From Gautieria morchelliformis (lineage: Eukaryota > Basidiomycota > Agaricomycetes > Gomphales > Gomphaceae): a DNA stretch of 64,000 nt. A program made the position numbers and the translations under genes. This document shows, piece after piece, positions 15,916 to 61,559 of the stretch. The stretch spans positions 41,924 to 105,923 of the forward strand of contig WHVA01000407.1 in assembly GCA_015179125.1 (NCBI GenBank). The letters are read 5' to 3'. Below the pieces are notes generated by a model, which did no database searches, had not been told where the DNA came from, and saw only the letters and a list, made by a program, of their open reading frames with translations. The first letter of the stretch is position 1. Every line of letters starts with the position of its first letter.

Positions 15916-16686
15916 TCACCGGGTGGTTTGGAGGAGCCACGTCGTGCCCGACGCGTCGCTCTGCAGCGGGACGACGCACTTGAACACCGTCTCCCCCAGC
16001 AGATAGTCCACAAGCTTCATGTGGGCGGACGGCCCGTAGGCCCGCCCCGTCCGGCGCGCGTACGCCGCCTTCATCGCCTCCCGCTGCGCCCCGCGCACGC
16101 AGCGCCACTCCTCCGCGGCGATGCGCTGGTCGAAGAACCGGTGCACCTGCACCACAAGATCCATGCACGTGACCCCGGCGTGCGCCTGAGCATGGACGGC
16201 GACGCTGCGCCCGGTGCGCTCGCACCGCACGCGCAGCGCGGGCGCGGGCGGCGCGCACGCGGGGTCGTGCGCGGGGAACGCGGGCAGCGGGGCGGACGAC
16301 GACATGCGCAGCGTGCGCGGGTCCGCGGCGAGGTCGTAGCGCAGCACGGTGGGCCGCGCGCAGAGCACGGGGTGGATCCGGGACGGCGACGCGGGCGGGG
16401 TCAGGAGCCCGGCTGCAGATGAAATGAAGGCGGGGTCAGCGGCGCGCGTGCGGGGACGGCTGGGAGCGTGGGACGTACGAGGTGCGAATGCGCCGGGGTG
16501 GACGTGGTCGTCGCAGGGCGGGAGAGGGATGTAGGGCATGGCGGGGGCCCGTGAGTAATGGACAGCGGGTGGGGAGCCGGTGCTCGAGGACCACGGGGGC
16601 GACAAGGGTTCGTAGTCGTAGCTCGACGATTGACGAGACATGCTGGTGGGCGAGGACAACGTCTGGTACTCGTATCGAGACGACAT
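15916..16686 (-). CDS. DUF6699-domain protein (256 aa)
   Basis: Single-exon minus-strand gene. I place the start at the ATG read from 16686-16684 (MSSRYEYQTLSS). An upstream in-frame start at 16794 would lie only 3 bp from a TATA box and would translate the probable 5' UTR. The N-terminal half is Ser/Pro/Ala-rich and probably disordered. The C-terminal half fits DUF6699: HPVLCARPTVLRYDLAADPR, then PALRVRCERTGRSVAV, GVTCMDLVVQVHRFFDQRI, MKAAYARRTGRAYG and MKLVDYLLGETVFKCVVPL. DUF6699 is common in agaricomycetes and has no known function to my knowledge. GC content is much higher than in the flanks. A broken copy lies at 5560-5960 in the same orientation. Confidence 0.85.
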   Translation of the reverse strand: MSSRYEYQTLSSPTSMSRQSSSYDYEPLSPPWSSSTGSPPAVHYSRAPAMPYIPLPPCDDHVHPGAFAPRTSHAPSRPRTRAADPAFISSAAGLLTPPASPSRIHPVLCARPTVLRYDLAADPRTLRMSSSAPLPAFPAHDPACAPPAPALRVRCERTGRSVAVHAQAHAGVTCMDLVVQVHRFFDQRIAAEEWRCVRGAQREAMKAAYARRTGRAYGPSAHMKLVDYLLGETVFKCVVPLQSDASGTTWLLQTTR

Positions 16687-16796
16687 GCTGGTGGCGGTGG
16701 TGGTGGTGGATGCAGTGTCGTGAAGGTGTGGAGGCAGTGTCGTGAGCGTCGTGGTGGGAGGAGAGAGCGAGTGACTGAGCGAGACGACGCGCAAGC

Positions 16797-16802
16797 TTTA
16801 TA
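16797..16802 (-). promoter_or_regulatory. TATA box of the DUF6699 gene
   Basis: TATAAA on the minus strand, about 110 bp before the chosen ATG. Transcription would start near 16770 and give a CT-rich leader of about 85 nt. Confidence 0.6.
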
Positions 16803-26039: not shown

Positions 26040-26952
26040 CGTCATAGTATTAGATATACCCTAGTTTGTTCACCTCAGAACATCCCAGCGCGGGGTCCAG
26101 TGAGTGGGGACTCTGGGGCGACATGACAACTGTCATGCCGCGGATAAACTGGAAATCAATTATTGTTATTACGACGGATATCTTTTCAGACCACTGCCGA
26201 ATAACCTCTGAGTATAATACCCGGTGGAGGGAAATCCCAAACTTTGACTCCATTTACATCGACGTTGAAGCCTATGTAAGCTTATTATGGCATACTTTCA
26301 ATTGACTTACATAACTGCACTAAGTATGTTGCACCAAACTTTCGGCCTCACGCGTCACGGTTCATGTGCCGGGGTCAAATTACATGGGGAGAATGGAATG
26401 CAAGTGCTTCCATCTATTTATTCGCTTAAAGTATCAGCAACGGCTGTTTTAATAAATGAAACATTAGCGGCCTATCGGTGACACGGGCTTTCCAGGTTAC
26501 CGCAGTCCACTTTCCCGTAGAACGGCCACCTCTTTGAAGTGAATGGGATCTAAACCGAGACGTTTTCTCTTCGGGTCATGAGCGCCGTCGACGAGTCACA
26601 AGTCAACACCCATACATCAAGGTGTCGGCGACGTCGCTGGCAACATATCCTGAATTTCCTGTAACGACGCTTCGTAGGTTGAGGGCTTAGGGAAGTAGGG
26701 TCTTCTTGGGAACTCATTCTGTTGTGCCAAGGTTTCGGTATCACTCTCACATGCAAACCGAGGAAAAGGAGTTCACGTGTCCCAAGCATGCGGCATGCAG
26801 CTCGAATCTCACAGCTTAACTATCTGGTAAGCATGCCTGCCTCGCATATGAATTTGGTATGCTCCCCGTCTTAAAATCCTCCAGAGGTCTACGTTCAGAT
26901 GATGCGAAAGTAGCATGTTTGCGGGATAACGAGAGTAGACGCACAGATATGC
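26040..26952. other. Gene-free stretch
   Basis: No gene or repeat is supported between gluconokinase and paralog A. Confidence 0.45.
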
Positions 26953-27172
26953 AGAGATTGATAAGAATACAAGCAGGACAATTAGGCCTATAGGCTCGAA
27001 CCTATCCAAAGTCTATTCTTTCCTTATCCCAGGAATCGCGGTGACGCCCACAGCAACATCAGCAGAGATTGATAAGAATACAAGCAGGACAATTAGGCCT
27101 ATGGGCTTGATCCTATCCAAAGTCCATTCTGTCCTTATCCCATGGAATCGCGGTGACGCCCACAGCAACATC
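26953..27172. repeat. 110-bp tandem duplication at the 3' end of paralog A
   Basis: Two copies (26953-27062, 27063-27172) begin CAGAGATTGATAAGAATACA and end CACAGCAACATCAG. They differ at about six positions plus an indel. The right-hand copy contains the last codons and stop of paralog A, and the left-hand copy repeats that tail downstream. Confidence 0.85.
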
Positions 27173-27950
27173 AGACATACTACTCTTGTCCTGAGAATGT
27201 TCCTCTCCATCGAGGGGTGTGTCTCTCCCGTTAATGGCGCAAGTATGCTTCCGGGAACGTGACGTTGGCGAAGGCATCGCAATTAGCACGGCGACCTGTA
27301 GATCTACAGGCTCCTCCACCTTGTTGGGTCTCGAAGCTTGAGGTACATCATTACGGGAAGGTGTCCTACGTAGCGGAGAAGCGAAATACCAAACTTCTCG
27401 CCCGAATCTTTGGTATAGGAATTGTTCGGCGTAACTAAGTTCACGTTGACGACGATCGAGAGAAGCAGGTGGAGATGGCGAGGTCGTCCGTAGCTCAACA
27501 GACAACGGCTGAATTCGGCACATGTCAGGGCGAGGCGGGTCCTCGATGGTAGGAATACTCACCATCATGTCCTCCCATTTACCATGCCCCGGCACAGCCC
27601 AAACATCCCACAGGGCAGGTTTACGGCACCTCTGCGTCACCACCAATAGATCTGACTCTGTTGCAAGTCTTTGCCGTCGTCGGTCCCTCACATATCGTGT
27701 GGCGAGTCCACATCCCATTAAAGTCTGATACCCGTGATGTTGGGTGGTGTCCGTACAACCGTAGTAGCATTGTCTCACTCACAATGAAGAGCGCCAAGAA
27801 GCTTATAAGAAAGCCAAAAAGCAAGGAAGACGTGCTTGGTACGTTAGGTGAGTTATTATGAGCGTTCACGATCGTCTGTTGGGGCATTTGGCTCCCTGTC
27901 GAGGTTGGAAGGTCGCTCAGCATTGGGGGGGGCATGGTGAGGAGCGACAT
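27113..27950 (-). CDS. Single-pass membrane protein of an unknown family, paralog A (241 aa)
   Basis: Minus strand, exons 27950-27783, 27724-27563 and 27508-27113 (726 nt). The start is ATG (27950-27948). Intron 1 splits the membrane helix; splicing gives LLFGFLISFLALFITLMGCGLA followed by the basic RYVRDRRRQR. A conserved PALWDVW block and WEDMM come next. Intron 2 (54 nt, GTGAGT...TTCAG) lies exactly where paralogs B and C have theirs, so exon 3 opens PLSVELR. The last exon has VDLQVAVLIAMPSP and ends DVAVGVTAIPWDKD. Because intron 2 is a multiple of three and lacks a stop, unspliced RNA would also read through. I do not know the function. Layout suggests a short outer N-terminus, one helix and a disordered inner tail with two short conserved motifs. 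Confidence 0.75.
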
Positions 27951-28399
27951 GGCCTGCTAGAGTAGGGGGCACTGGCAGGGAGCGAACCCTGCTGCGTATG
28001 CCAACTCTTCCAATCGATTCGGGGCGTGGGATGGTAGCGCTATACCTGAGGAAGCATGGCTAAGATTGGTCCCTGGAACAGCCGCTTCCTGGTACTGCCG
28101 ACAAAACACCGTGGCCTTGAAGCTATACGTGCTTCAAGGAAGGTGCCGGACTGAGTGGCTGCAATTGTTATAACCATCATATGCTATATCCGTGCGCTAT
28201 ATTCCACTCTAAGCTGTAGCCCACTCTGGAAATACTCAGCTTGGATAGGCGGTACTCAGTACCAGTGCTCAAGCGCTTGTGGCTGTGCCAGTGAACCAGA
28301 ACTAAATTTTAATTCCCACAGTGTCGGTCATCGCGACCTTAGCACCGCAATCGCTAACAATATCGCCAGTGACCAGTCGATTGTTACGAGTCGGCTAGA

Positions 28400-29129
28400 T
28401 AACAACTAGCACTCTGAGGCGCTGACGAATATTCAGAGAAGCCCATCGGCTTTCTATTATCGTCATCCGACTGTGTGGTTACGTATTCTCTCACTTTTTC
28501 CAAAGGTAGAGGATACCCAGGGGAAACCCTACCGGCTTCGTGTTTTCTGGCATACCGACAGAGAAGGTGAATTGGCGGGCATTCTGATGCCAGCAAGCCC
28601 AGATTTTGAACCATGTAAGTAGCTCCATATTTCAACTACATCAACTTATCACTTTCCTTGGAATATCCTTGGAATAGTAAAACCGAGCCGCACATCTACC
28701 TGGGGAGGCAGAATGTATGTTACAATAAGCTTGGCCGACAAATGGCAGATGTCAGAAACTCTCATGACATAGGCTGGATGACGGAGACAAAAATGCAGTT
28801 CGGGTGAGACATTATTTGTTTTTTTTTTCCTTACTAAATGCCATTCGAGAACCACCGGCATGTTGTGCCATTGATGACAAAAATATCCTTTGGACAACGT
28901 TGTGACTATCCTGCATGGATCGTGGAGTGGTCCGTAGCTATATGCAATCGTGAAGCTTGAAGAACCCATCTCTGAGGAAGAGGGCCACGAGTTGGCGCTG
29001 GGTACGGAAAATTTGATCCAATGCTTTATGGTAAGGGGGAAGAAACCGCACGCACGTTTCATGAAGAGGCTGCCAGAGCCCGAAAAATCCGCCAAAACGT
29101 ATTCAGTGTGGTGCTACCGGTCCAAAAGT
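28400..29129 (+). CDS. Possible multi-exon gene or gene relic of unknown function
   Basis: Several + strand frames separated by plausible introns read like protein. About 28408-28617: AFYYRHPTVWLRILSLFPKV, then FWHTDREGELAGILMPASPD. About 28676-28806: HIYLGRQNVCYNKLGRQMAD, then GWMTETKMQFG before a GTGAGA donor. About 28850-28965: HVVPLMTKISFGQRCDYPAW with IVEWSV. About 28950-29129: KLEEPISEEEGHELALGT, and in another frame TFHEEAARARKIRQNVFSVV ending at a stop at 29127-29129. The last two blocks need a frame change I cannot place on good splice sites, and no start is clear. I recognise no family. It may be a decayed gene. Confidence 0.35.
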
Positions 29130-29139
29130 AACCTCGTCT

Positions 29140-29910
29140 GAGTTGTGCAATGAGGTCCCTGAGACGAACGCATTACTTGGATGCCAGTTGTTATTAAGCA
29201 TATATTGATCTGGTTTAGACGAAGTTCTCTTGTGAAACGCCTGCTTTTTTGGTATGATTTAAACTCACTTCTGCGCTCTGGTCTTTGATCTGCCCTAGAC
29301 AACAACATACGCTTTCATATTCTATATCCCCCCGTCGACTCCCTCCCCACGTTGGTGACCCGATAGAAGCTATGCGGGAAGACTAAGGGCATAAGCACGT
29401 ACGTGTTTACTGTTAAACTCTAAAGTTGTTCACAGATTCGTTTTTAACAGCTCGAGACTGCTACACACTCACCTGGAAATAAGATAATAAACTGAACGAG
29501 GTGTGGCTTGACCAAACGCATCGCCCTCTTCAACTGACCACAATAACAACCCCCTCCCCGGGATACATATTCTTACAGCACATACCATGTGCCCTAGTGA
29601 CCAACGTCCCATGATGTTGTTGGTCTGGCCTACGATATCAGATTCATAGTGCGCTGCATCGACGGCATTTGTCCGAAGCTTTCTAAAATGACTGGTCACA
29701 CAGAAGGGCTGTGTTCCAGCTCAAATCATCCCGAGGAATATTTCCCTCTTCCGTATATATCAATCTTCCGAGCTGCAATGATGGCCACGCACAACCAGGT
29801 TGACTTTGGGCACAGCTAGTCTAATTTGACTTTATGTAAACACTGAATGAGGAGTAAACCAAGTACTCGCTTCATCAGATCTATCAAGGGACGGACATCC
29901 CTTGGCTTGC
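29140..29910. other. Gene-free stretch
   Basis: I see nothing supportable here between the possible relic and the SRRM1-like partial copy. Confidence 0.4.
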
Positions 29911-29916
29911 TCCCGC

Positions 29917-30722
29917 TGGGCGCTGGACGGTGTCTCAATTGCCCCCGGACGTTCAACAACCATGGCAGACGCAGGTTTCTTCAAAGGCACGTCTACGGAC
30001 CAAGACCATAGTTTCTCGGATAAAGAAACTAAGCTTCTTAAGACGATGGAGTTTCCATCTTGTTTTGATAAAAAGGTGTGTTAGCGCTCGTTTCACCCTA
30101 CTCAAATGTTAACCGAAGAAAAGGTGGATATGCGCAAAGTGAACTTGCAAGTGATCAGGCCGTGGATAATGAACAGGGTTATTGAGCTGGTGGGTTTCGA
30201 AGATGAAGTTGTCGTCGAATACGCGATGGGTTTGTTGGAGGATGAGTCGAACCCCGTGAGTTGCCATTATGCTAATTCACGTTCATTGAACTTACACCAT
30301 CGTAGACTCCTGACCCCAAAAAGATGCAAATTAATCTTACTGGCTTCCTCACGGCATCCACACCCACTTTCATGACAGCCATCTGGACATTATTACTTGA
30401 AGCGCAGGATTCACCTGCAGGTATCCCCCGTAGCTTTGTAGAAGAGAAAAAGGCAGAGATGAGGAATGCAAACAAAGGCGATGAGAAAGTACTCGAAGAA
30501 AGGGAAGGAGACGACTAGATGAGGTTAGAGAGAGAGAACGAGGACAGCGTGATCGAGATGGGGGCTTCGGAGGACGTGGGAGAGGAAGAGGACGCGGACG
30601 GGGTGGATGGGATGGGACAAGGAGGGGTCAGTCAAGTTCAGGTTTATCTCCCAGTTCTCAGCTAACTTGGTGAACCTCAGCGCCCACCCCGACAATCTCG
30701 TACTCCACCATGTCGCGACTAA
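29917..30722 (+). pseudogene. Inverted 5' partial copy of the SRRM1-like gene, with a one-base deletion
   Basis: Exons 29962-30075, 30124-30255 and 30306-30518 reproduce the first exons of the minus-strand gene at 32851-34590 with the same splice sites. They encode MADAGFFKGTSTDQD, KVNLQVIRPWIMNRVIELVG and KKMQINLTGFLTASTPTFM, which is the PWI domain. In the run after GAAGAAAGGGA one A present in the parent is missing, so the frame shifts and stops at 30516-30518 (EEREGDD). The RS-rich part is absent: homology ends near 30722, soon after the third intron. The predicted product would be a 152-aa PWI-only peptide. The intact gene has its homologous segment at about 33800-34645 in inverted orientation. 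Confidence 0.85.
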
Positions 30723-30729
30723 CTAACCC

Positions 30730-31740
30730 ACCCAGTTAACTATGGTTTAAAATCACGGAAAACGGTTACTGGCGGGCACCTTGCGACGGCCTCGATACTC
30801 TTACGCCCTGTGTTTGTGAGCTTCCATGAGAACCGGAACCGAAACATAACCTATGGCAACTCATGGCGAGGAAACCCAACTGCTTCGTCGATCAGGGGCC
30901 TCCCAAGCATTGTCGAAGGTTTTCGAGAGCAACAAACAGTGTGGCTCAGGGTTTGTGCTGAATTCAACAACATACAGGAAAGGACTGCGCGTCACTATGC
31001 TCCACACTCGAACGGCCTGGGCGACGATAAAAGCAAATTGTTATTTATTGTCGCTGTCAGCGCGTGGGTCGCTGACGTGCCTGGGGCAGGAGACATCGTT
31101 ACTAAGATGCATGTGCCCTAAGCAAAATTCCAAGGTGTGTTTGCCATATGAATGAACGCGCCACTCCGGTGGTGGCCACACCTCCTAAACCTAACATATT
31201 GCCAATGGGGGGTCTATCGAGGGAGGATCGGGCTCTCGGTCCGTTCGCATTCCTGGAGGTGTAACCCTGCGGTTGCATAGGATTTCTTCGACACATGGAT
31301 AGAGTTGTTGGAATTACGGACTCGAGGTGTGAAGACGTACGCAAGGCGGTCCGGACCTAGGATGGGGCTCTCAGGGGTAGACGTGATGCGAGGCAATGCA
31401 AGAGGTCGAGGATCTAAAGTGCGTCAAGGCCAAACCATATAGCGTCTGAGACGTGGCTGTTAGAGATTAGTTGTTGAGTAACAGAATATTAATTGAAATG
31501 TAGGTGAAATGGAGGATTGTGGGTACTTGGTGTCTCACCTATAGGCGCGGCTGTGCCACTAATATGTGGGTGAGCACCATTTTCTGGTTTGGGAAACCAG
31601 GCACCAGTTCACTGCTTAGTCACTGCTTCTAGATCTAATTAGCGCTGATGTGATTGGTCACGTGAATACGCAGCAGTCCCACTGTCCCAGTTGAACGGCT
31701 GCAACGACGTCACATAATGATCTTTTGCTCTGTTCCCCTT
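30730..31740. other. Gene-free stretch upstream of paralog B
   Basis: No gene is supported. The short frames at 30810-31155 and 31102-31396 show no motif. Confidence 0.4.
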
Positions 31741-31744
31741 GTCC

Positions 31745-31750
31745 TATAAA
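31745..31750 (+). promoter_or_regulatory. TATA box of paralog B
   Basis: TATAAA lies 52 bp before the ATG at 31802, followed by an (ACTC)n run at about 31751-31768. Confidence 0.5.
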
Positions 31751-31801
31751 CTCACTCACTCACTCACTAAGGCAGTGGAACGGCGCTGAGAGATAGACGC
31801 G

Positions 31802-32564
31802 ATGTCGGATGCACAGTCCGTCCCGCCATTCATCCCAGGGCTCGTTATTGTGACCCTACTCATTGTCATATCTCTTCTCATTGGGTGGAGAAACTATGCT
31901 CGACGAATGAACTCCCATGTTATTCCTGGACTGGAATGGGAATTTTATGAGGGAGAAGTCATGGAAGGAGGGTCCCGCAAGCCAGAGAAGCCAAAGCTGT
32001 GGGAAGTTGGCGTTAGCGGCAGGGCAGTCGCTGAAGAAACATTCAATGGACATGGATGGGAAAGGATAATGGTAGGTAGAACATCTTGACCTATAAAGAA
32101 TACCTTGAGGAATATCGATGATGTAGCCACTCTCCGCCATGTCTCTCAACCCAGAATCTACTGCCGTCGGAACTCCCCAAACTTCCCCATCGCTAGGGAG
32201 TCAGACACCCTCTCATGCACCCTCCCGTTTTCATCGATTAAAATCATTTTCCTCCGGTGCAAAGGCGCCACCTACCAGTTTGGTGCCGCCTCCACACGAT
32301 CCCCTACATCGTCTCCAAGTATCCGTTCTTATATCCATGCCTTCTATTTCTTCACGAATTGTGCCATCACGAGATTCACCAGCGCAGCTTCCAGTCCCAC
32401 CCAACCCTGACCACAGCGAAGAGCAGCATACTGAGGACAACCACGTAACCGTCGAAGAGGAGGAAGAGGGTGCGCCGGATGTAGCATTCGGTGTTGTTGT
32501 CCTACCATGGCGGAAAGAAGAGGATGATGGTGAGATTGGGCAGACGACCATTTCAGTAATATGA
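31802..32564 (+). CDS. Single-pass membrane protein of an unknown family, paralog B (235 aa)
   Basis: Exon 1 is 31802-32071, the intron 32072-32126 (GTAGGT...TGTAG), and exon 2 32127-32564. The N-terminal helix is IPGLVIVTLLIVISLLIGW, followed by RNYARR. KPKLWEVGV and GWERIM precede the intron, and exon 2 opens PLSAMSLNPES. The tail is Ser/Pro-rich, then LHRLQVSVLISMPS, an acidic run, and PDVAFGVVVLPWRKE near the C-terminus. Motifs, length and the phase-0 intron position match paralogs A and C. This copy lies between the two inverted SRRM1-like segments. Function unknown; I infer a plasma- or endomembrane protein from the helix and basic stop-transfer residues. Confidence 0.75.
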
Positions 32565-32850
32565 CGAGTAGCCATGATATGTAACCTTATTATTTTCCTT
32601 CGAACCTTTGGAGACTTAATCTAATGCTTTATATACATACCTGTCCCACAATGCCGATGGCGAGGTCACTTCGATGTCGGTCGACCAAGTGGGCAAAAGA
32701 CACTTTTCAATGCTCAATGGGGTCCTGACCCGAGCTAAAATATCAAATGGCATGGGTTGCAAACCTAATGTTACTACATTCACGATCAGTCGAAATTGCA
32801 TAGCCATGAATGATAGAGGAATATGAATACACGACAGCGTCGTCTTGATT

Positions 32851-34590
32851 TTAGGATTGGTCACGATCAGGCTCTCCGGCGGTGCTGTCCCTCCGATCGC
32901 GCGTGCGCACCACCTTTTGCCTCAATGCCTTCTCCCTGAGTTCACTTTCGATTTTTGTCAGGTCTTGTGTTGAATTTGAGCCGTGCTGGCACAAGAAAGA
33001 TTGTCAGAAGGCACAAGCAGAGAGGAACACGAGGAAAAGAGAACCTCACGTCATCATCACGACCCTCCCATCGGCTCTGCCTTCCGCCCGGTGCATTCCT
33101 CCCAACGTCTACTTCCATCCGATCAATGAGCCGCTTCGAACCCCCGCCTCGATCTCGGCCGCTGACATTCGATGCCACGCTCGGACTCCGTTTCATTCGC
33201 TTCATAGGACGTTCTTTGACCTCAGAGTCTGACGAACGAGATGGAGAACGACCACGTCTGCGGTAAGGCGACGAACGGCGGCGAACCCGACGACGAGCCC
33301 GATGCCGCGGCGGCGGCGAGCGAGAGCGGCGCATTTCAGGAGTGGGACTTCTGGCTCTTTCACGGGCCCGGTCCCAATCGCGATCTCTCGGAGGAGGCGA
33401 GCGGCTGCGACTCCGACTTATAGTTGGATTGCGGGCGCGTCCTCTTGCACGAGCGGGGGGCGTATAGCTTCGGGCACGAGCACGAGCACGGTCACGACGT
33501 GATAGAGAGTCTCTGCGAGGTGGGGTATCTCTTGGTCCTCTATGAGTATCTCTTGCTCCTCGGTGAGGTGGAGAATCTCTTAGTCCTCTGTGGGGTGGAG
33601 AATCTCTTGGCCCTCTATAAGGCGGAGTGTCTCTTGCTCTAGGGGGTGTCGGAGTCATGCTTGGCGTACGTCTTCTGCGTGGGGGTGGGGGCGGTGAGGC
33701 GCGTGTCATGGATCTACTGCGTGAACGCGAAGACCGAATCGGAGTATAGGAGCGGCGTCGGCGGGGAAGAGGGCTTCGGGAGTAGGATGGGGAGTGCTCG
33801 CGACGACGTGGTGGAGTACGAGATGGTCGGGGTGGGCGCTGAGGTTCACCAAGTTAGCTAAGAACTGGGAGATAAACCTGAACTTGACTGACTCCGCCTC
33901 TTCCACCCCAACCATTATCCCTTCCTCTTCTGTTTTCATCCCACCCACCCCGTCCGCGCCCTCTTCCTCTCCCACGTCCTCCGAAGCCCCCATCTCGATC
34001 ACGCTGTCCTCGTTCTCGCTCTCTAATCTCATCTAATCGTCTCCTTTCCCTTTCTTCGAGTACTTTCTCATCGCCTTTGTTTGCATTCCTCATCTCTGCT
34101 TTTTTCTCTTCTACAAAGCTACGGGGGATACCTGCAGGTGAATCCTGCGCTTCAAGTAATAATGTCCAGAGGGCTGTCATGAAAGTGGGTGTGGATGCCG
34201 TGAGGAAGCCAGTAAGATTAATTTGCATCTTTTTGGGGTCAGGGGTCTACGATGGTGTAAGTTCAATAAACGTGGATTAGCATAGTGGCAACTCACGGGC
34301 TTCGACTCATCCTCCAACAAACCCATCGCGTATTCGACGACAACTTCGTCTTCAAAACCCACCAGCTCAACAACCTTGTTCGTTATCCACGGCCTGATCA
34401 CTTGCAAGTTCACTTTGCGCATATCCACCTTTTCTTCGGTTAACATTTGAGTAGAGTGAAACGAGCCCTAACATACCTTCTTATCAAAAGTAGATGGAAA
34501 CTTCATCGTCTTAAGAAGCTTAGTTTCCTTATCCGAGAACCTGCGGTCTTGGTCCGTAGACGTGCCTTTGAAGAAACCTGCGTCTGCCAT
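32851..34590 (-). CDS. PWI-domain SR-related matrix protein, SRRM1/SRm160-like (512 aa)
   Basis: Minus-strand exons 34590-34477, 34428-34297, 34246-33878, 33838-33050 and 32985-32851, all phase 0, total 1539 nt. The N-terminus MADAGFFKGTSTDQD and the PWI domain (residues about 27-125: KVNLQVIRPWITNKVVELVG, MQINLTGFLTASTPTFM) match SRm160. Then come a charged REREREG-like stretch, Gly/Arg-rich GRGRGRGRGG, and a long RS/RP-rich region with degenerate RDTPPYRGP/RDSPPHRG repeats. The last exon gives DLTKIESELREKALRQKVVR. In other eukaryotes this family binds RNA and acts as a co-activator of splicing and 3'-end processing in nuclear speckles. Intron 3 is very short (39 nt) with a weak GTTTAT donor, yet it keeps the frame. 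It is divergent from the p24 gene with 71 bp between start codons. Confidence 0.92.
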
Positions 34591-34661
34591 GGTTGTTGAA
34601 CGTTGAACGTCGAACCGGGGGCAATTGAGACGCCGCTCATATCCAGCGCCCAAATCAAGTT
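34591..34661. promoter_or_regulatory. 71-bp divergent intergenic region between SRRM1-like and ERV25-like genes
   Basis: Only 71 bp separate the two start codons (34590 on minus, 34662 on plus). Both promoters must therefore overlap each other or the neighbouring coding sequence. No TATA box is seen. Confidence 0.6.
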
Positions 34662-35501
34662 ATGCGTCCACGACCAGGGCATGCCCTACGTTTACTGTTC
34701 CGCCTGTTGATCACCTCCCTCTTACTTCTTCCAGCTTCGGCAATAAAATTTACTCTCCAATCATATCGCTATCCTCCCGCAAAATGCATATGGAACACAG
34801 CCCACGACAACGCCCTCGTCATTGTTACAGCCATAGTTGGACCAGGTGATGACCAACGGGTCGACATAGATATTGTCGACTCGAGTCCACAGAAAAACAA
34901 ATATTTAAGCAAGAAAAACATCAAGGACGAGACTAGACTTGCCATTACCACTCACGCTGAAGGCGAGGTTGGCGTGTGCTTCAAGAATTATCTGGGAAAT
35001 CGTACGTGGCAGGAACTGACAATGTGGCACAGGGTATACGGGGCACTAATATGAAAGTTTAGATGTACCATCGCAGGACGCGCCAAATAAGAGCCGTGTC
35101 ATAGACCTTGATGTTGACATTGGAGCCGATGCTGTAGACTATAAGTCCGTCTTGCTTTATATCACACGACAAATATACAGACATCTAAGTAACTCTCAGT
35201 GCCATAGCCAACCAGGAGTCTCTCTCTGGGCTCGAGACGGAGATGCGCAAGCTTGAAGGGCTAGTGACGGAGATTGTTGGCGAGATGACCTATCTTAAGA
35301 AGCGTGAGGAGAAATTCACGAATACTAATGGTACTTCTTCTGTCTGCCTTCCCATCCTATTGCTGACGGTTGTCTGCAGAGTCGACACGGGACCGTGTGC
35401 AGTCTTTTGCATTATTTACTATATTCGCCCTGGTTGCACTTGGTGTCTGGCAGATCCTTCATTTACGTTCATTCTTCAAACGTAAATATCTCATCGATTG
35501 A
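34662..35501 (+). CDS. ERV25: p24-family cargo receptor, ERV25-like (224 aa)
   Basis: Exons 34662-35001, 35063-35144, 35200-35330 and 35380-35501 (675 nt). There is a signal peptide (LLFRLLITSLLLLPASA), then a GOLD domain starting IKFTLQSYRYPPAKCIW with the paired cysteine in GVCFKNYLGN. DYNAIANQESLSGLETEMRK begins the coiled coil, which runs to KKREEKFTNTN. The membrane helix is FALFTIFALVALGVWQIL, and the cytosolic tail LRSFFKRKYLID has the FF and basic signals used for COPII and COPI binding. These proteins cycle between ER and Golgi and help sort secretory cargo, in heteromers with other p24 members. YNAIANQESLSGLE resembles fungal Erv25 (p24-delta). The second intron uses a non-consensus GTCCGT donor, but frame and motif demand it. 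Confidence 0.92.
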
Positions 35502-35612
35502 ATGGATTGCAAATATCATTGCATGCCACATCAAAGAAGGATTCACGTTCTTGCGTTGGAGAAGTCGTCTGGATAACAAAGACGACTATTCACTTCTGGC
35601 TACCAGTCGAGT

Positions 35613-36631
35613 TCAATGGACGCGTTTTCTGCTTTCAGTTCGGATAATTGTATCCTGTCTACTCCAGTCTGCCAACTTCAGGAACTCAGCGAAGAGTAGT
35701 CCACGGGTCTGTCGAATTCTAGAAAATGGGTCTCGACGAGCTCCTTGACCAGTGGATCTAAGGCGACATGAAGGCGTCCCCATTTTGAATTCATGTCTGT
35801 GATACTGGTTGGGCTCACCTTTGCGATACACCAGTCCGTCTTCGTAGCCCCCTGCCCGCGCGTACGTGGCTCCATCTTGAAACTGTGTCCAAGTTCCATT
35901 CCAATTACGGTCAAGCGGCTTCATGAGCCTGCATCTGATTGTTTCCCTAACCAGGCCGTACTTTCTTAGATCCTCAGTGGTTAGTTGGCGAGCTTCCTCG
36001 ATCGGGAGATACTCTGGAAGCAGACATAGGTTCGTAAATCCTTCAAGAACCCATGCTGGGTTGTCATATTTTCTGCCGAATACGACCTTCTCAATCGGGG
36101 TAAGAGTTTTAGACAGATTTTGAATGGCCAGGCTTCGTGCCTGGGCCATGTCCCACATGGTAGCAAGTCGCAAAATGGACTGCCATTCAGCAGTTTCCCA
36201 TTTGTCTGTGAAGGTCTTATATTCCAAGGTTCTAGGTTTAAATAATTAGAAGAGGGCGACTCGGAGATGGATACTTGCAGCCTCACAATGGATAGAGAAG
36301 TGCAAGCAGCCGTTCAAAATCGATGCTCTTCACTTGTGGTATAATGATTGGGTCGGCATCTGTATATCCGTCTGTCTGCCTGGAACCAGGTGGCAGGGAA
36401 AACAACCCGCTAAAGAAAGGAGAATCGAGCTCGAACTTATATCGAGGTATCTTGAAGAGCACGTTTTCAACCTAGATCAAGCCACCGGGCCAAGTTGGGG
36501 TAAGTTTGGATTGAAAAATAAACTCAGATGCCCACCAAGAAAATGAGGCCGTCTTGAAGATAATAAACTTTATGGTGATTTGGAATCGCACCAGCATCAA
36601 TGTTGAATGGGCCTGCAGTTGCGCTGGCCAT
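35613..36631 (-). CDS. BTB/POZ-domain protein (about 299 aa)
   Basis: Minus-strand exons 36631-36536, 36471-36287 and 36231-35613 (900 nt). Exon 1 is MASATAGPFNIDAGAI to YYLQDGLIFL. Exon 2 carries the BTB core: VENVLFKIPRYKFELDSPFF, SGLFSLPPG, DADPIIIPQVKSIDFERLLA and LLYP. Exon 3 continues TLEYKTFTDKWETAEW, then SILRLATMWDMAQARSLAIQ and WVLEGFTNLCLLPEYLPIEE. This order is typical of the large agaricomycete BTB family, whose members are thought to mediate protein-protein contacts. The last about 60 residues are uncertain. The alternative frame KWGRLHVALDPLVKELVETH, ending near 35678, looks more protein-like, and a frameshift or unrecognised intron near 35810 may separate them. Confidence 0.82.
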
Positions 36632-36803
36632 ACTTGACGACGAAGGACGAGGAAGAGACAGATGGAGCCTAAGGCTCAAGGCTTATAGGGGTGCTGAATT
36701 CTCAGTTCGGTGCTCTCGAGCGGGCTTCTGCTGCTGCTGCAACACTTCAAGTGCACGTGCCACCCGAAGGGCACTGGCGCTAGGTCACGCATACCGAGCG
36801 CCC

Positions 36804-37661
36804 ATGTCCAAGTTAGTAACAATGACATTTCACATCCGTGCTGCCACTCCTAATGACATTGTAGGTCAAGCTTCAAGCTTCATTCCCTGTAAGACAAAAG
36901 GCTTACTTGTATTGCACTAGGATACGATTATACACTTGATCAAAGACTTGGTTAGTTGTGAGATACGTACGTGCTGCTCACATCACAATTGAGTTGTGAA
37001 TCAGGCTACATACGAAAGAGAACCTGATTCGGCAAGGGCCACTCCAGAACTCGTGAGTTTCTGTGCGGAGGATCTGCGCGATTTCTATTCACGTCGGTTG
37101 GTTTGTAGCTGCAGAAAAATCTCTTCGACACCCCGTATGCCCATGCGTTGCTGGCCGTGAGCGGTTCCTTAGCCCAGCCCGGAGAACCGGTTGCATTGGC
37201 TCTATACTTCTTTAATTTCTCAACATGGACGGGCAAGCCGGGACTTTTTGTGAGTACTTGAAGTCTTTATCACGGACCGCCTGGCACATCTACGTGTGAT
37301 AGTTGGAGGATCTCTATGTCACAGAGAGGTGTCGTAACCAGGGAATCGGTAAGGCTATGTTTGGAGAATTGGCCCATATTGCGCAGCAGAAGGTGAAATT
37401 ATTTCGAATGTTTGTGACAAGTCGTTGCTGATGTTGACCTGGAGCAGAATTGTGCCCGCTTAGATTGGGCTGTTCTCAAGGTGGGTCTACCTTCCATCAT
37501 AGGAGAGGCCAGGCTGACACCTAGGATCGTAGTGGAATGCGCCAAGCATTGCCTTCTACGAAGAGGTGCTGGGTGCAAAAGGCATGTCAGAGTGGCAGGG
37601 GATGCGCCTTGAAGGGGAGGGCATTTCGGCACTATCCAAGTTTCGAATGACAGCTAGCTAG
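36804..37661 (+). CDS. GNAT-family N-acetyltransferase, diamine acetyltransferase-like (173 aa)
   Basis: Seven small exons close in frame: 36804-36860, 36921-36950, 37005-37052, 37115-37249, 37303-37392, 37448-37480 and 37533-37661 (522 nt). FHIRAATPNDIDTIIHLIKD followed by LATYEREPDSARATPEL opens the fold. ALALYFFNFSTWTGKPGLFL and EDLYVTERCRNQGIGKAMFG give the acetyl-CoA loop (RxxGIGK). RLDWAVLKWNAPSIAFYEEV and LGA form the C-terminal strand, with the conserved WN..I.FYE pattern of spermidine/spermine and thialysine acetyltransferases. The likely reaction is acetyl transfer from acetyl-CoA to a small amine; the substrate is not determinable. The last splice must use the second AG (CGTAG at 37532) to keep WN in frame. 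It lies divergent from the BTB gene, with 172 bp between start codons. An upstream Met (36804) or Met7 (36822) could be used. Confidence 0.9.
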
Positions 37662-37829
37662 TCAGGCATAATACCATTAGAGTAGTGGGCAATAAACCAA
37701 CATGGCTGGTGGTGACTATACAGTTATGGCGGTTTTCAAAGTCCGCCCTTCCTCTACTGCTCACGGTACTAAAAAGTGCCTCAAAACTCACGAATACAGT
37801 AAGGACATCGGTGCCATATCATTACCTCC

Positions 37830-38477
37830 ATGGACCCGGCAAAGCTCGCAAAGCTCCAGGCGCAAGCAGCGAGCAACCGGATTGGTGCGTGGTTTGGCCA
37901 CTCGCAAGTTCTGGGAGTGTCGACCCGTGATTGTTTGCAGGCGGTAAAGGAACGGTTCGGCGTAAGATTGTTCGAAAAGCGAAGCCGTCGAATGCTCAGG
38001 ACGACAAGAAATTGCAGAGCTCTTTGAAAAAGCTTAATGTGCAGCCGATTCCTGGTGTCGAGGAGGTGAACATGTTCCGGGAAGACGGCAATGTACTGCA
38101 TTTTACTGCACCTAAAGGTACGTTATGCGTTTGAAGAGTAATGGTATCTGGGGACGAGCCACTGATTTGACGTGCCACTAGTGCATGCGGCGGTCCCTGC
38201 CAACACATTCGCCATCTACGGCACAGGGCATGTGAAGGAGCTGACCGAGCTTGTTCCCGGAATTCTGAACCAGCTTGGTCCTGACTCCCTAGCATCTCTT
38301 CGTAAGCTTGCGGAGAGCTACCAGGCCATCCAGCAGGGCCAACAGAGGCCAGGAGGGCCCAATGCCGGCACAACGGGTGGCGAGGATGATGACGATGACG
38401 ACGACGTGCCCGATTTAGTGGAAAACTTTGACGTGGAGGATGCTGCTGCCAAGGGAAAGCTTGAGGAGCTTAACTAG
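37830..38477 (+). CDS. EGD1: Nascent polypeptide-associated complex subunit beta (175 aa)
   Basis: Exons 37830-37884, 37941-38117 and 38182-38477 (528 nt). [20 protein letters not shown] is followed by [16 protein letters not shown], the ribosome-binding basic motif of NAC-beta. The NAC domain follows: [40 protein letters not shown] and [20 protein letters not shown]. An acidic tail ([20 protein letters not shown]) ends the protein. NAC-beta pairs with NAC-alpha at the ribosome exit tunnel and shields new chains from mistargeting. Length and order match fungal EGD1/BTF3. It lies 168 bp after the GNAT gene, in the same orientation. Confidence 0.96.
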
Positions 38478-38867
38478 TGGAGGAAATCTTTATCAGGGGT
38501 GAGATTGTGCTCGATGTGGGTTCATCATATTTATTGCAAAGAGTCCAGACTAAAAGCATTAACTTTATCATCTACGATCTTCGATCTTCGTTTCCTGCTG
38601 CAGTTTGTGTTATCTCTCTGTCTCCCACTGATCAACATGCCGTTTTCGCTTCCGCATTGCACTTGCAAAAAGACGATACATCAAAACATTATCGCTCGCT
38701 AGTACCGGTTGTATCGTCGAATATTTGTCATGTACCGGACTACAGCGTACCAGACAAGATGGAGTATTTTATACACCGACAAGCTACATGCAGATATTCC
38801 ATGGCAAAACTTCGTGAAAATAGGAAGTGAGTACATAAAACGAACAAGGGCGACGTCGTGGCGCAAG

Positions 38868-41800
38868 CTATACCTCGTTCCTGATGATGAGACTGAAGCA
38901 TGGCTCGCAGTAAGGTTTCTGGTCTCGCTGGAAAAATGCTGGATCGTCAAAAGGTTTCTGGCAGCCCTGTACCCGTCACAGATCAGGGTTGAATGTAATG
39001 AGTGGCGAATTCAGGTCACTCACCGCACACAAGAAGCATTCCCAGCACCACTTCCCACCGAGAGCTTCAACAGCTTGCATACCGTCCCTGATGCTCTTCT
39101 TACATCGTTTACATTTGGGATAGCGCAAACGCACATGGCACGCCTCGCAATACGGGTGGCCCTGGTACACAGTGAAGCCAACGTCGTCGTCCTGTGAGAC
39201 AACATCCGCTTCATAATTTATTCCTCCGTCCCTGCTGGGAATAGTTGGTGAGAGAAACGGATCACCACACTCGGCACAAAAAAAGTGTTGCTCGTGATAT
39301 GTCCGCTTCCCTAGCGCGGGGTCATCGAGCGTGATGAAACGCTCGTCAATAATAGGCGTCCGACAGTGGTAGCACTGCGGCGCAAATTTCTAAGAAAGGA
39401 ACGTGTTACAACGCGTCTTTGCGCAAACAGAAGAGATAAAGACCTCGTGGTAGTCAAGATGACAGTATGGCCTTCCGTCGTGTTCATAACTGCTAACGTG
39501 CTCAAGCAACTCGCCGCACACAGTGCACCTAGAAGCCAACAGCGCGGTTAGATTTATCGGAGTGAAAGCGACCAGCGTATGACTGCGCACTTGAAGCAGG
39601 CGGGATGCCACCGGCCTCCCATGGCACTGACAATTCTGCCAATGATACCTTTACTACATCCGTAACATATAAGACCCCTCCGTTTCTGGGGTGACGTATT
39701 AACTGAAGTTTGAAGCGTTCCCTCAAGGTCCGCGACGATGATGCCAGGTATAGAAGATGAAGATGAAGAAGAAGCCGATGAAAGTGCTGGCAACTCGGAA
39801 ACCGTGATAGTTGGTGTCGCTTCCGAGAATATTATGGAAGGTGCCTGAGGTGTATTTTCGATTGGTGATTCGGTCACATAGACTGAAGGCGCTGCAGAAA
39901 CAGCGATAGCTATCTCGGAGATGTTTATGGAAGATGGAGCAGTGATGGATATGGAAGGACCTGTAGCCATAGAACGCTGTGACATTTCGATATCGTCTTC
40001 GTCGTCATCGTCATCGTCATCGTCGTCGTCGTCCTCTTCGTCCTCGTCTTCGTCTGGGAAAATGATGGTGGGCACAGACTGTTTAGGAGGAAACTTTGAA
40101 GCCCTCGAGTCGAAAGGTGGTCGTTGAATTGAGGAGGCAGGTGGCGTATCGTCTAAGTCGATAATTGAGTGTGCTGGGGGGCGCACAACTGGAGACCTTG
40201 AACTCGGTCTGAATGGTGCCCGATTTCCACGTGGATCCACGCGTTCTGGAGGTTGTTTTGTTGTCACTTCTTCCTGCAATGACAGCGAGGCAAGCCTAAA
40301 GGCAAGAGACTGTGTCTGTCTTTGTCGAGGGGGACGTGAGAAGGAAGTCGATGGAGCTGGATGCGTAGGTCCCGAAGACGTGGGCTCCGACGGCTGTGGG
40401 TGTGAAGTCGTGGGGGGGTTTGTCCGGTCGATTTCGTGAACTACATGAAACTCCGAGACATTATTGCTCCCATTACTGTTCCAGCTGCTGCTCTGTGTCT
40501 GTCTTTGTCGAGGGGGGCGTGAGAAGGAAGTCGACGGAGCTGTATGCGTAGGTCCCGAAGATGTGGGCTCCGACGGCTGTGGGTGTGAAGTCGTGGGGGG
40601 GGTTGTCCGGTCGATTTCGTGAACTACATGAAGCTCTGAGACATTATTGCTCTCAATACCGTTCCAGCTGCTGCTCTGTGTCTGTCTTTGTCGAGGGGGG
40701 CGTGAGAAGGAAGTCGATGGAGCTGGATGCGTAGGTCCCAAAGATGTGGGCTCCGACGGCTGTGGGTGTGAGGTCGTGGGGGGGTTTGTGCGGTCAATTT
40801 CGTGAACTACATGAAGCTCCGAGACATTATTGCTCCCATTACCGTTCCAGCTGTTGCTCTGTATCTGTCTTTGTCGAGGAGGGGGTGCGAAGGAAGGCGA
40901 TGGTGCTGGATGCGTAGGTCCCGAAGACGTGGGCTCCGACGGCTGTGGGTGTGAAGTCGTGGGGGGGTTTGTCCGGTCGATTTCGTGAACTATATGAAGC
41001 TCCGAGACATTATTGCTTCCATTACTGTTCCAGCTGCTGCTCGGGGTGGGAAGCGTGGAACTTCGTTGTGGTGATGGTAGTCTATTTAATCCAGACTTTA
41101 TATCTTCAACATTGGGAGACTGAGTCGGCGAAAAGGGCAATGTGCGACGCGGCGTAGGGGGCGTGGCGGCAGGTGGTGAGCCTATGGAGTGACCTGGAGC
41201 AGGCGGTTGTGAGGAACGAGGAGATGCTTCACTAGGTGGTGAAGGAAGAGGTCTTTTGGAGGCAGTTGAGTCAGCCGTAAAAGTGGGAGAGGACTGTGCA
41301 CGGTACGAGCTATTGGGGATGGTCTCGGTGTATAGGACCGGCTTATGAGGCTGATGCTGAGTACTCGGAGGGTGGTGTTGCGGCTGGGCTTGGAATAAGC
41401 GTGTCTGAGACGATTGTGATATTTGGGTCACCGAGGACGAAGGCACGTGCGGGGCACTGGCTGGGTATGCAGGCTGGGACTCGACTCGTGGTCCATGAAC
41501 AGCTATCGAGGTCGGGGGCACTGAAGTTGCTCTCCGCCTTGCCAATCCTGTTTCCGGCCTAGGTTCTGGCAAGGGTCGGCTCGTCTTGTCAGGGGACTGG
41601 GAGCTTGCCCGTAAAGGGGGTACTACCGGACCAGCACCAGGTCGAGCTTGGGGGTATGATGGTGACGTGGTATATGAATAACCCTGGAGTGGAGGCCGAG
41701 GCTGATTGTATAACTGACTAGGCTGGGGAGCCGGTGCCGCTGCTGGTGCTGTGCGCGCAAATGTTGGGTGTGGCTGAGGAGCATATTGCAGATGAGGGGC

Positions 41801-42010
41801 GGCGGGTGGTTGGCTGAAATATTCTGGACGCGGCTGCCGATATTGGAAATGGCTTGGATATTGCTGGGAGAAACCACCAGACGTTTGGGGTTGGCCTGTC
41901 TGCGAATAGGGTGGCTGTTGAGGAGGATTCGGCTGGGGTGGCTGAAATCCTCGACTGTGTTGCAGTGGGTACTGATTCCGCGTTCCCTGCTGCTGATAAT
42001 AAGGGTTCAT
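38868..42010 (-). CDS. LIM-domain protein, paxillin-like (989 aa)
   Basis: Minus-strand exons 42010-39591, 39528-39444, 39389-39024 and 38966-38868 (2970 nt). The start is the ATG at 42010 (MNPYYQQQGTRNQYPL). About 780 residues of Pro/Ser/Gln-rich disordered sequence include a four-unit 61-aa repeat and an Asp/Glu run (about 40000-40055). Then come three LIM zinc fingers. LIM1 is CYGCSKGIIGRIVSAMGGRW, HPACFKCTVCGELLEHV and YCHLDYH. LIM2 is CYHCRTPIIDERF, FFCAECGDPF and PYCEACH. LIM3 is CKRCKKSIRDG, WCWECFLCAGCQKPF and YCEPC. The first splice uses donor GTGCGC inside LIM1, giving CFKCTVC; unspliced reading breaks the finger. The layout resembles yeast and fission-yeast paxillin-like Pxl1, which acts at polarity sites and the cytokinetic ring (role by analogy). 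Confidence 0.9.
40310..41041 (-). repeat. 183-bp in-frame tandem repeat, four units
   Basis: The CGAGACATTATTGCT-type block recurs at exact 183-bp steps (for example about 40458 and 40641). It encodes a 61-aa unit with WNxNGSNNVSELHVVHEIDR and TSHPQPSEPTSSGPTHPAPS. Copies are almost identical in DNA, so the array is young or homogenised. Confidence 0.92.
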
Positions 42011-42019
42011 CAATGGATA

Positions 42020-42515
42020 AGCTCACCGTCCTTGGCGTACTAATAAGTGGCAAGTACTGCGGCGTCGTAGGTACGACGAAACAAATACCACCAGGTCACG
42101 TGGGTTGCATTTCCATATGATACTCCACTTCGCTTACGCTAGATATAGAAATGCAACCAGTTATATCACCACTACTAAACTGGATGGACTACGCTAATAA
42201 GTATCTTCCTTGACGCACTCCTATACGTGGTTCCGAGTCTGCTCGAATGTTTTGGTATGTGAGCCGCTGACGAGCATCCTGTAAACTAATGCCGGGTAGT
42301 AGGATAAGTACTATAACAATGGGACCATGCATGTTCTTCAAGGAGCGGAAGTAGTGAGGTGTATTGCACACACATGACCGTGCACCATAATGCATATCCT
42401 TCAAAGTTCTTGACGGGCAATTAAATAACCAGGAAGGCTGAATGGCAATTTAATCAGAAAACAGCGCAGCATGGTGAAATGAAGAGCGTACCATCAGCCC
42501 AGACATCTGTCATCA
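42020..42515. other. Intergenic, no feature seen
   Basis: This is the LIM gene upstream region, ending at the 3' end of paralog C. I see no ORF worth keeping. Confidence 0.45.
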
Positions 42516-43420
42516 TCACCATTCCTGTTCCACAAAGGGAACAACCACGCTACCAAATGCCACTTCTAACGGGCCTTCGTCATCGTAGTGCTCATCATAC
42601 GCTTTGGATTCGTATCCATGGGATTGTGGGGTCTCGAAGCTTGGCTTCTTCCCCTTGTAAGACGCAGCGTCTCCCGCGTCCGATCCTTCCTCAACGCCTT
42701 TCGAATCGCTGTTCTCTGGTGGTGGCGGTTGGATATCAGTGTCAGTGCTCTCTCTGATCTTCTCCGGTGTATATGGGGTATGCCGTACACGTCGTGGACA
42801 CGGAAGTGATATTAACACAGCGACTTGGAGTCGGTCTATAGGTTCCTCGTCATCATGATCGTCTGGGGGCTGAACACCTGACAGCGCCTGTGTCGGAGCA
42901 AGCACTGAAATAGGCGGTTGCCCTGGCCGTGGTGGTCTGCGCTCGCCACCAAACATACGCGTGAAGAATGTAACTGGTCTATCTGAAGGTACAAGATACC
43001 GGGGGCGACTTGGTTTGGGTGTTGCACGTAATGCAGTTGCAGAAAGCGGCTGCAGCGCTGTCATTTCATCGCTGAACATGATTCCTGAATGTGACTCGCC
43101 ATGATGTCGCCCCACGTCCCTCCTTCGCTCTCGCTCAATACCTTCAAATCCCACAGCTTTGGTTTTGGACCTTTGGGACCGCCGCCGCCGCTACTGATTA
43201 TACCTTCTATGGGCCATGTAGGGTCATCATCTCCCTGGCTGTTGCGTCGCTCGAGAATATGTCGCCATACGATAATGCACACGATTACGGCCAGGAGCAG
43301 ACCCGTGATCAAGAATGCAGGAAGCAGCGGGGGCGTCGCTACTGGGGCTGGTATTGGGCTTGTTTGTTGCGCAAAGTTCGCATTCGTGGTCTCCGTTGCA
43401 GACGTAGATGATTCGGACAT
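42516..43420 (-). CDS. Single-pass membrane protein of an unknown family, paralog C (284 aa)
   Basis: Minus-strand exons 43420-43100 and 43049-42516 (855 nt). The Thr/Ser/Pro N-terminus is followed by helix LLPAFLITGLLLAVIVCIIV and WRHILERR. Then PKPKLWDLKV and GTWGDIM end exon 1. The intron 43050-43099 (50 nt) begins GCGAGT and ends CTGCAG, a GC-AG intron at the same codon and phase as the GT-AG introns of A and B. Exon 2 opens PLSATALRATPKP. The C-terminal region has IDRLQVAVLISLPCP and ends PLEVAFGSVVVPFVE. Without splicing the frame stops soon after exon 1 (AMK then stop), so the intron is needed. Function unknown. The three paralogs lie within 16.3 kb in orientations minus, plus, minus. 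Confidence 0.75.
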
Positions 43421-57115: not shown

Positions 57116-57605
57116 TGTAAGGGCAACCCTAGCTGGTTGTGGAGATCACACTACCACACAACTGACAAGGGGAAATCCAAAGTATGTATAAATGAACAGA
57201 GCATACAAGAGAGGGGATTCTCACCTGACAAGGGGAAATCCAAAGAGAAAAGTCTAAGGACCCCCAATGTCAGCAAGCCCGTATTATACTACGCTGCGCA
57301 GCCAGGGACAACACTTGGCACCCGCCATCAACCCTGCATCTCCCTGACCACCCTGACCCTTGATCGACCCTTGATGCCACCTATTACGCGAGTCGCTTGA
57401 TTTCCGACACTGTTCCGAGAGTGGAAGTCGGAAATTGGAGTGGAACTGGCGAGGCGAACAGAACTGGTGGAAGTTCTCCCAGAAGCGGAATCATTTCCAA
57501 AAGCGGAGGCGGAGATGGAATCGGAACAGGAAGCGGAGTCGGAAATGGAGTTGGAACTGGGTGTGGTGTCGGAACTGGAAATGGAAAACAGGGTGTCCCC
57601 TGACA
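57116..57605 (-). repeat. 3' LTR of the gypsy element
   Basis: 490 bp, TG...CA ends on either strand (TGTAAGGGCAACC ... CCCCTGACA on plus). It contains two ACAAGGGGAAATCCAAAG repeats and a run of short GGAAN-type repeats, and it overlaps the 3' end of the integrase frame. Confidence 0.92.
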
Positions 57606-61296: not shown

Positions 61297-61559
61297 CTTA
61301 ATGACTAGTGACTTGGGGCCAGGGGTGGCAGCGACAACATAGCGCTTCGGAAGGCGTTTCTCCCAAGGGCGGATGCGGGATGGACGGGGTGTCGGATTTG
61401 GTTTTTGTGTGACTTTATCCGGTGGGTCTGTACGAAGTGAGGGGAGTGGGGGCTTTTCATTCTCTACTTCAAGACAGGCAAACGGTTATGTACAGGCAGC
61501 AGGGGCACACATCTCACCCGCTGCGCGTCACAAAATCCGACACATCCTCCGCTTCCGGT

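What the first reader, a model, noticed from the sequence alone, without database searches (positions are those of the whole stretch)
27113..43420. Three dispersed paralogs of an unnamed single-pass membrane protein family
Genes at 27.1-27.95 kb (-), 31.8-32.56 kb (+) and 42.5-43.4 kb (-) share one layout: short N-terminus, one helix, basic residues, a KP.LW[DE]V block, W..IM just before a phase-0 intron, PLS just after it, a proline-rich tail, [DR]LQVxVLIxMP/LP, and a C-terminal [DE]VAxGVxxxP[WF]. I know no named domain for this. Conservation of two short motifs in an otherwise free tail suggests binding sites for a partner. Local expansion in three orientations suggests selection for copy number or diversity.
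Basis: partly seen in the sequence, partly recalled or inferred. Interest (0 to 1): 0.75.

Follow-up and report, generated by a model that had tools for sequence, protein, structure and literature searches.

The report
Unnamed mushroom single-pass membrane protein family
Three genes in this false-truffle genome belong to a real, unnamed family of small membrane proteins found across mushroom-forming fungi; they are old relatives of one another rather than a recent local expansion, and their conserved pieces probably fold together into one small domain inside the cell.

Summary
Genes A (27950..27113, -), B (31802..32564, +) and C (43420..42516, -) give intact spliced proteins of 241, 235 and 284 aa. 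A and C equal public Gautieria morchelliformis models letter for letter; no model of B was found. They share one membrane segment, four short tail blocks and a phase-0 intron inside block 2. An HMM built without window sequences finds the three tails, membrane part removed, at E 1e-13 to 1e-18; no shuffled tail (2000) matched. Relatives come from nine orders of Agaricomycetes; no Pfam model or solved structure explains the tail. The genome holds at least five members, three of them here.

A+B+C as one clade is rejected (AU p 2e-7), and A- and C-type relatives occur in two other orders, so this is not a recent local expansion. AlphaFold2 models from two subfamilies put three of the blocks into beta-strands, so they look like parts of one mini-domain rather than separate binding motifs (moderate confidence; covariation did not confirm it). 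Best reading: N-outside, C-inside single-pass adaptors with a membrane-tethered mini beta-domain; partner and role unknown. A new family of an ordinary kind.

The parts
27113..27950 (-). Gene A, 241 aa, subfamily II; introns 27782-27725 and 27562-27509, both phase 0
   Evidence: identical to P0002; tree
27710..27824 (-). Gene A membrane segment (residues 43-61, split by the first intron)
   Evidence: hydropathy; helix 40-82 in the AF2 model
27599..27622 (-). Gene A block 1 KPALWDVW
27488..27577 (-). Gene A block 2 WEDMM, intron, PLSVELR (strand 113-118 in model)
27272..27304 (-). Gene A block 3 DLQVAVLIAMP (strand 178-187 in model)
27140..27172 (-). Gene A block 4 DVAVGVTAIPW (strand 224-233 in model)
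31802..32564 (+). Gene B, 235 aa, nearest to subfamily III (placement weak, long branch); intron 32072-32126 phase 0
   Evidence: HMM tests; tree
31829..31885 (+). Gene B membrane segment (residues 10-28)
31988..32011 (+). Gene B block 1 KPKLWEVG
32057..32147 (+). Gene B block 2 WERIM, intron, PLSAMSL
32310..32342 (+). Gene B block 3 RLQVSVLISMP
32478..32510 (+). Gene B block 4 DVAFGVVVLPW
42516..43420 (-). Gene C, 284 aa, subfamily III; GC-AG intron 43099-43050, phase 0
   Evidence: identical to P0001; tree
43268..43324 (-). Gene C membrane segment (residues 33-51)
43142..43165 (-). Gene C block 1 KPKLWDLK
43029..43114 (-). Gene C block 2 WGDIM, intron, PLSATAL
42801..42833 (-). Gene C block 3 RLQVAVLISLP
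42534..42566 (-). Gene C block 4 EVAFGSVVVPF

Best explanation
The three genes are old paralogs of an unnamed family of small single-pass membrane proteins found across Agaricomycetes. Shown: homology, four conserved blocks, one hydrophobic segment, a shared intron position in the window genes, and a split between A and C older than the divergence of three orders. Inferred from the positive-inside rule: the short Ser/Thr/Asn-rich N-terminus is outside (or lumenal) and the tail is cytosolic. Predicted by AlphaFold2, not shown: the stretch after W..IM, the LQVAVLIxMP block and the DVxFGVxxxPW block are three beta-strands of one mini-domain, whose connecting loops are free to vary in length. Inferred, with no direct evidence: the protein is a membrane-tethered adaptor in which the mini-domain holds a cytosolic partner (or another family member) at a membrane, and the Ser/Pro-rich loops are regulated, for example by proline-directed phosphorylation.
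For: Homology: 35 proteins at E<=1 from the 3-protein profile; HMM of subfamily I without any Gautieria protein hits the tails of A, B, C at 1.2e-18, 1.3e-18, 1.1e-13; 0 of 2000 shuffles. Layout: 89 members have all four blocks by regular expression; gaps 46-194 residues between blocks 2 and 3, 2-84 between 3 and 4; information per column 1.87-3.06 in blocks, 0.70-0.77 in linkers. Topology: (exactly one hydrophobic segment in 86 of 93; flank after it more positive than the one before in 86 of 89). Mini-domain: models of P0002 and P0048 (different subfamilies) give the same three strands; ten-residue mean pLDDT over them 71-87; DSSP assigns strands only where backbone pairing is present (general knowledge). 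Loops: 411 SP/TP against 323.3 (sd 13.7) in shuffled linkers (kinship of the rows inflates this).
Against: Whole-model pTM is only 0.38 and 0.39, and the rest of each model outside helix and strands is of low confidence; the two alignments (85 and 83 of the 149 proteins, picked by hand) share many rows, so the models are not independent. Covariation with 56 and 46 effective sequences shows no significant strand diagonal. No fold match. In C the 20 residues after the membrane segment have net charge -1 against 0 before it, so its topology rests on the family. Nothing here shows a partner, a location or a phenotype.
Confidence: 0.5

Rival explanations
1. One reading: a disordered tail with independent short linear motifs that each bind a partner.
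For: Blocks are short and separated by linkers of very variable length, 0.74 of whose residues are disorder-promoting; linkers have low conservation; model confidence in linkers is low; covariation gives no support for pairing.
Against: Two AlphaFold2 models put the end of block 2, block 3 and block 4 into strands; blocks are kept in one order in the 89 members in which all were found, as co-folding would need.
Confidence: 0.22
2. A self-assembling membrane scaffold: strands complete a sheet between two family members, so that paralogs such as A, B and C pair with one another.
For: Three strands alone make a thin sheet with open edges (inference); the Gautieria genome keeps at least five divergent members.
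Confidence: 0.15
3. A cell-wall or surface sensor of the Mid2/Wsc sort (recalled families), with a Ser/Thr-rich stalk outside and a signalling tail.
For: The N-terminal segment has 44% Ser/Thr/Asn on average, and 43 of 89 members with a membrane segment carry an N-glycosylation sequon there.
Against: The segment is short (median 40, minimum 7, 9 in B); no WSC or other extracellular domain among Pfam matches of 85 members.
Confidence: 0.08
4. An autophagy-type receptor: W..[ILV] of block 2 is an Atg8-binding motif (motif recalled).
For: 73 of 89 members have W..[ILV] at block 2 (60 of 64, 7 of 18, 6 of 7 in subfamilies I, II, III).
Against: Only 7 of 18 in subfamily II; gene A has WEDM; in both models the stretch is a helical turn leading into a strand.
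Confidence: 0.05

Closest known systems
FAM174-like membrane proteins (Pfam DUF1180)
   Same: Weak match of 4 of 85 members, best E 0.0041; single-pass with arginines after the helix (recalled).
   Different: Weak and in few members; the four tail blocks are not part of FAM174 as I recall it. Probably only helix plus arginines.
EGFR transmembrane and juxtamembrane segment (PDB 2m20)
   Same: Best match of the family profile among PDB sequences, E 0.024: helix and basic residues.
   Different: Only profile positions 33-71 align; nothing of the tail blocks.
Snowball (SNB1, DUF6533), an agaricomycete membrane family
   Same: Conserved agaricomycete membrane protein of unknown mechanism (PMC10949477, passages seen).
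   Different: Seven membrane helices predicted in that paper; one hydrophobic segment here.
Fungal wall sensors Mid2/Wsc (recalled)
   Same: Ser/Thr-rich N-terminus, one helix, cytosolic tail.
   Different: Very short N-terminus here, no WSC domain, other tail.

Membership tests
Recent local expansion (A, B, C each other's nearest kin) | A+B+C form one clade | tested here: not met
   rejected, lnL 176.1 lower, AU p 2.35e-7 (59-row quick tree); A nearest to Ramaria/Hysterangium/Clathrus rows, C to Hysterangium/Clathrus and metagenome rows
The unnamed family itself | Tail found by a profile without Gautieria sequences | tested here: met
   subfamily I HMM (67 rows) hits tails A 1.2e-18, B 1.3e-18, C 1.1e-13; weakest of the cross-tests: subfamily III HMM on tail A, 2.1e-6
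The unnamed family itself | Phase-0 intron directly after W..xx | tested here: met
   3 of 3 window genes. Elsewhere by inference: of 42 members with block 1 but no spliced block 2, the script flagged 37 that run from W..xx into V or A[SRG], read as an unspliced donor; one (P0126) set aside by eye leaves 36
FAM174-like (DUF1180) | Match over Pfam's cut-off | tested here: inconclusive
   4 of 85 members at E<=0.1, best E 0.0041; the table gives no cut-off for that row
Snowball / SNB1 | Seven membrane helices | tested here: not met
   exactly one hydrophobic segment in 86 of 93, two in 3, none in 4
Wsc-type sensor | WSC domain | tested here: not met
   not among the 13 Pfam families matched at E<=0.1 by 85 members
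Atg8-binding receptor | W..[ILV] core kept across the family | tested here: not met
   73 of 89, 7 of 18 in subfamily II; gene A has WEDM
Atg8-binding receptor | Binds Atg8 | not testable with these tools
   needs a binding assay
Any known fold | Match of the tail to a solved structure | tested here: inconclusive

The most novel reading that the evidence does not exclude
The tail is a new kind of split mini-domain: a membrane-tethered three-stranded sheet whose strands are stitched together across disordered loops of freely changing length, kept through the radiation of mushroom-forming fungi as a class-specific membrane adaptor, with A- and C-type genes held near one another as an ancestral cluster (they seem to share one contig in Clathrus columnatus too, though not in Hysterangium).
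Probability: 0.15. Interest if true: 0.6.

Novelty: new variant of a known kind. Interest (0 to 1): 0.38.

Why it matters
It defines a protein family found in nine orders of mushroom-forming fungi that Pfam does not hold, with several members in one genome, a shared intron and a testable structural prediction. Such class-wide unnamed membrane families are candidates for poorly understood biology of this group. In itself it is no great surprise: many fungal families lack a name.

Tried and rejected
Recent local expansion: rejected by tree and AU test. Against a too clean story: A-group plus C-group held together gave p 0.09, so a duplication inside Phallomycetidae is not excluded; the wide subfamily III set of 11 rows has support of only 37; B sits on a long branch, B with the C-group has support 69, and B with the A-group is not rejected (p 0.31).

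Chance similarity or pseudogenes: rejected (open frames, public models for A and C).

The inverted repeat as source of the gene copies: its arms (29949-30715 and 33804-34603) flank gene B and are 90-96% alike, while A is 33% identical to B and 32% to C (24 and 26% in the wider alignment). The repeat is a later, separate event that copied part of a PWI gene.

Covariation: that part of the first script failed by division; the repeat gave no significant pairing.

Distribution outside Agaricomycetes is not settled: each of the three protein searches scored only 7994 candidates. Most listed relatives are unnamed metagenome proteins; ten named species were looked up and lie in nine orders of Agaricomycetes; for the other names the class is recalled.

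Rows left out: the tree used 58 of the 149 listed proteins plus B; structure alignments used 85 and 83 of 149; topology used 92 of 149 plus B; subfamily I was defined as whatever of the 92 was not assigned to II or III. The count of family members in the genome is a lower bound: searches with A, B and C did not find the two distant members, which came from the protein searches.

Full report
Where it is. The window is a contig of Gautieria morchelliformis (Basidiomycota, Agaricomycetes, Phallomycetidae, Gomphales), named through identical public proteins. The own genome has 122 Mb in 1113 contigs and the window is C457:41924-105923.

The three genes. Splicing gives A: 27950..27113, minus, introns 27782-27725 and 27562-27509, 241 aa; B: 31802..32564, plus, intron 32072-32126, 235 aa; C: 43420..42516, minus, intron 43099-43050 with GC-AG borders, 284 aa. 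All four introns are phase 0; frames, blocks and borders were re-checked. A and C are letter-identical to public models P0002 and P0001. B shares no 12-letter word with any of the 149 listed proteins, although its words were in the first query; it may be unannotated, or annotated at a length outside the search range.

Is the similarity real. The alignment of the three shows A 33% identical to B and 32% to C, with identical columns bunched in the blocks. A profile of the three lists 35 proteins at E<=1; two wider profiles, at E<=0.1, bring the list to 149 proteins, fragments and weak hits included. The stricter test is: an HMM of subfamily I (67 rows, no Gautieria protein) hits full A, B and C at 1.5e-17, 2.2e-18 and 5.6e-16 and, with N-terminus and helix cut off, at 1.2e-18, 1.3e-18 and 1.1e-13 (database size set to 20000). 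HMMs of subfamily II without A and its four nearest relatives, and of subfamily III without B, C and P0003, find the others too; the weakest tail match is A by subfamily III, 2.1e-6. In the five searches none of 2000 shuffled tails was listed at E<=10, and of 510 window ORFs only exons of these three genes.

Family anatomy. For topology 93 members were scanned (92 of the 149 with blocks 1-3 in order, plus B): 86 have exactly one hydrophobic segment, 3 have two, 4 none at the threshold; the flank after the segment is more positive than the one before in 86 of 89, but not in gene C; the N-terminal part has a median of 40 residues (7-127) and 44% Ser/Thr/Asn. 89 members have all four blocks by regular expression; gaps between blocks vary widely. 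Information per column on alignment A4 is 3.06, 2.26, 2.51 and 1.87 in blocks 1-4 against 0.77 and 0.70 in the two linkers. Of 42 listed proteins with block 1 but no spliced block 2, the script flagged 37 that run from W..xx into V or A[SRG]; setting P0126 aside by eye leaves 36 that look like proteins read into an intron at the place where the window genes have theirs. By their membrane-segment letters they come from all three subfamilies, so the intron is probably older than the split. Three of them (P0108, P0135, P0141) read AS, which would fit a GC donor as in gene C; this is inference from protein letters.

History. A tree of 59 rows (58 of 149 plus B, quick method, SH-aLRT) shows subfamily I (32 rows, 99*), a subfamily II set (16 rows, 89) with gene A among one metagenome row, Ramaria, Hysterangium and Clathrus (5 rows, 98*), and a C-group (6 rows, 93) of gene C with metagenome, Hysterangium and Clathrus rows. 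The wider subfamily III set of 11 rows has a support of only 37. Gene B is a long branch beside the C-group (69). A+B+C as one clade is rejected (p 2.35e-7); A-group plus C-group is not rejected (p 0.09), nor B with the A-group (p 0.31). Since A-type and C-type genes both occur in Hysterangium (Hysterangiales) and Clathrus (Phallales), the duplication that separates A from C predates the split of these orders from Gomphales. In Clathrus columnatus the A-type (Clacol_009469) and C-type (Clacol_009407) proteins are listed with contigs of the same length, 2,758,758, so probably one contig, while the subfamily I member has another; in Hysterangium the two have different contigs. Ancestral linkage is possible, not shown. 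The Gautieria genome has two further members, at C366:31079-32424 (P0043) and C184:135462-136235 (P0022), which the tree puts with subfamily I. Searches with A, B and C gave nothing outside the window's contig below E 0.05 and missed those two, so five is a lower bound.

Meaning. I take the family as N-outside, C-inside single-pass proteins with a cytosolic mini-domain, most simply membrane adaptors. The loops carry more SP/TP than shuffled loops (411 against 323.3, sd 13.7), which fits phosphorylation but is inflated by kinship among rows. What the partner is, where the protein sits and what it does are unknown.

Neighbourhood. Pfam scans of 20 chosen ORFs show an AAA/shikimate-kinase-like kinase at 25.5-26.0 kb, PWI at 33.9-34.5 kb with a partial inverted copy at 30-30.7 kb, LIM domains at 39-42 kb, a P450 at 44.4-45.3 kb and Ty3-type retroelement parts at 57.3-62.8 kb. 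None gives a functional link that I could test.

Noticed in passing
29949-30715 and 33804-34603: Inverted repeat, 90-96% alike in three stretches, on both sides of gene B: a partial, inverted copy of a PWI-domain gene (PWI match in an ORF of each arm).
   Followed up: partly
26951-27062 and 27062-27174: Direct repeat of about 111 bases at the 3' end of gene A; the outer copy, beyond the stop codon, repeats the codons of block 4 in altered form.
   Followed up: partly
43099-43050: GC-AG intron in gene C; three metagenome relatives (P0108, P0135, P0141) read AS at the same place, which would fit a GC donor there too.
   Followed up: partly
57328-62813: Ty3-type retroelement parts on the minus strand: integrase, RNase H, chromodomain and gag matches.
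   Followed up: no
40310-41158: Tandem repeat with a period of 183 bases inside the long ORF that ends in a LIM domain.
   Followed up: no
38166-38477: Plus-strand ORF that looks like the end of a nascent-polypeptide-associated complex beta subunit (recalled; Pfam gave no match).
   Followed up: no
15916-16797: Minus-strand ORF with a DUF6699 match, E 1.7e-19.
   Followed up: no
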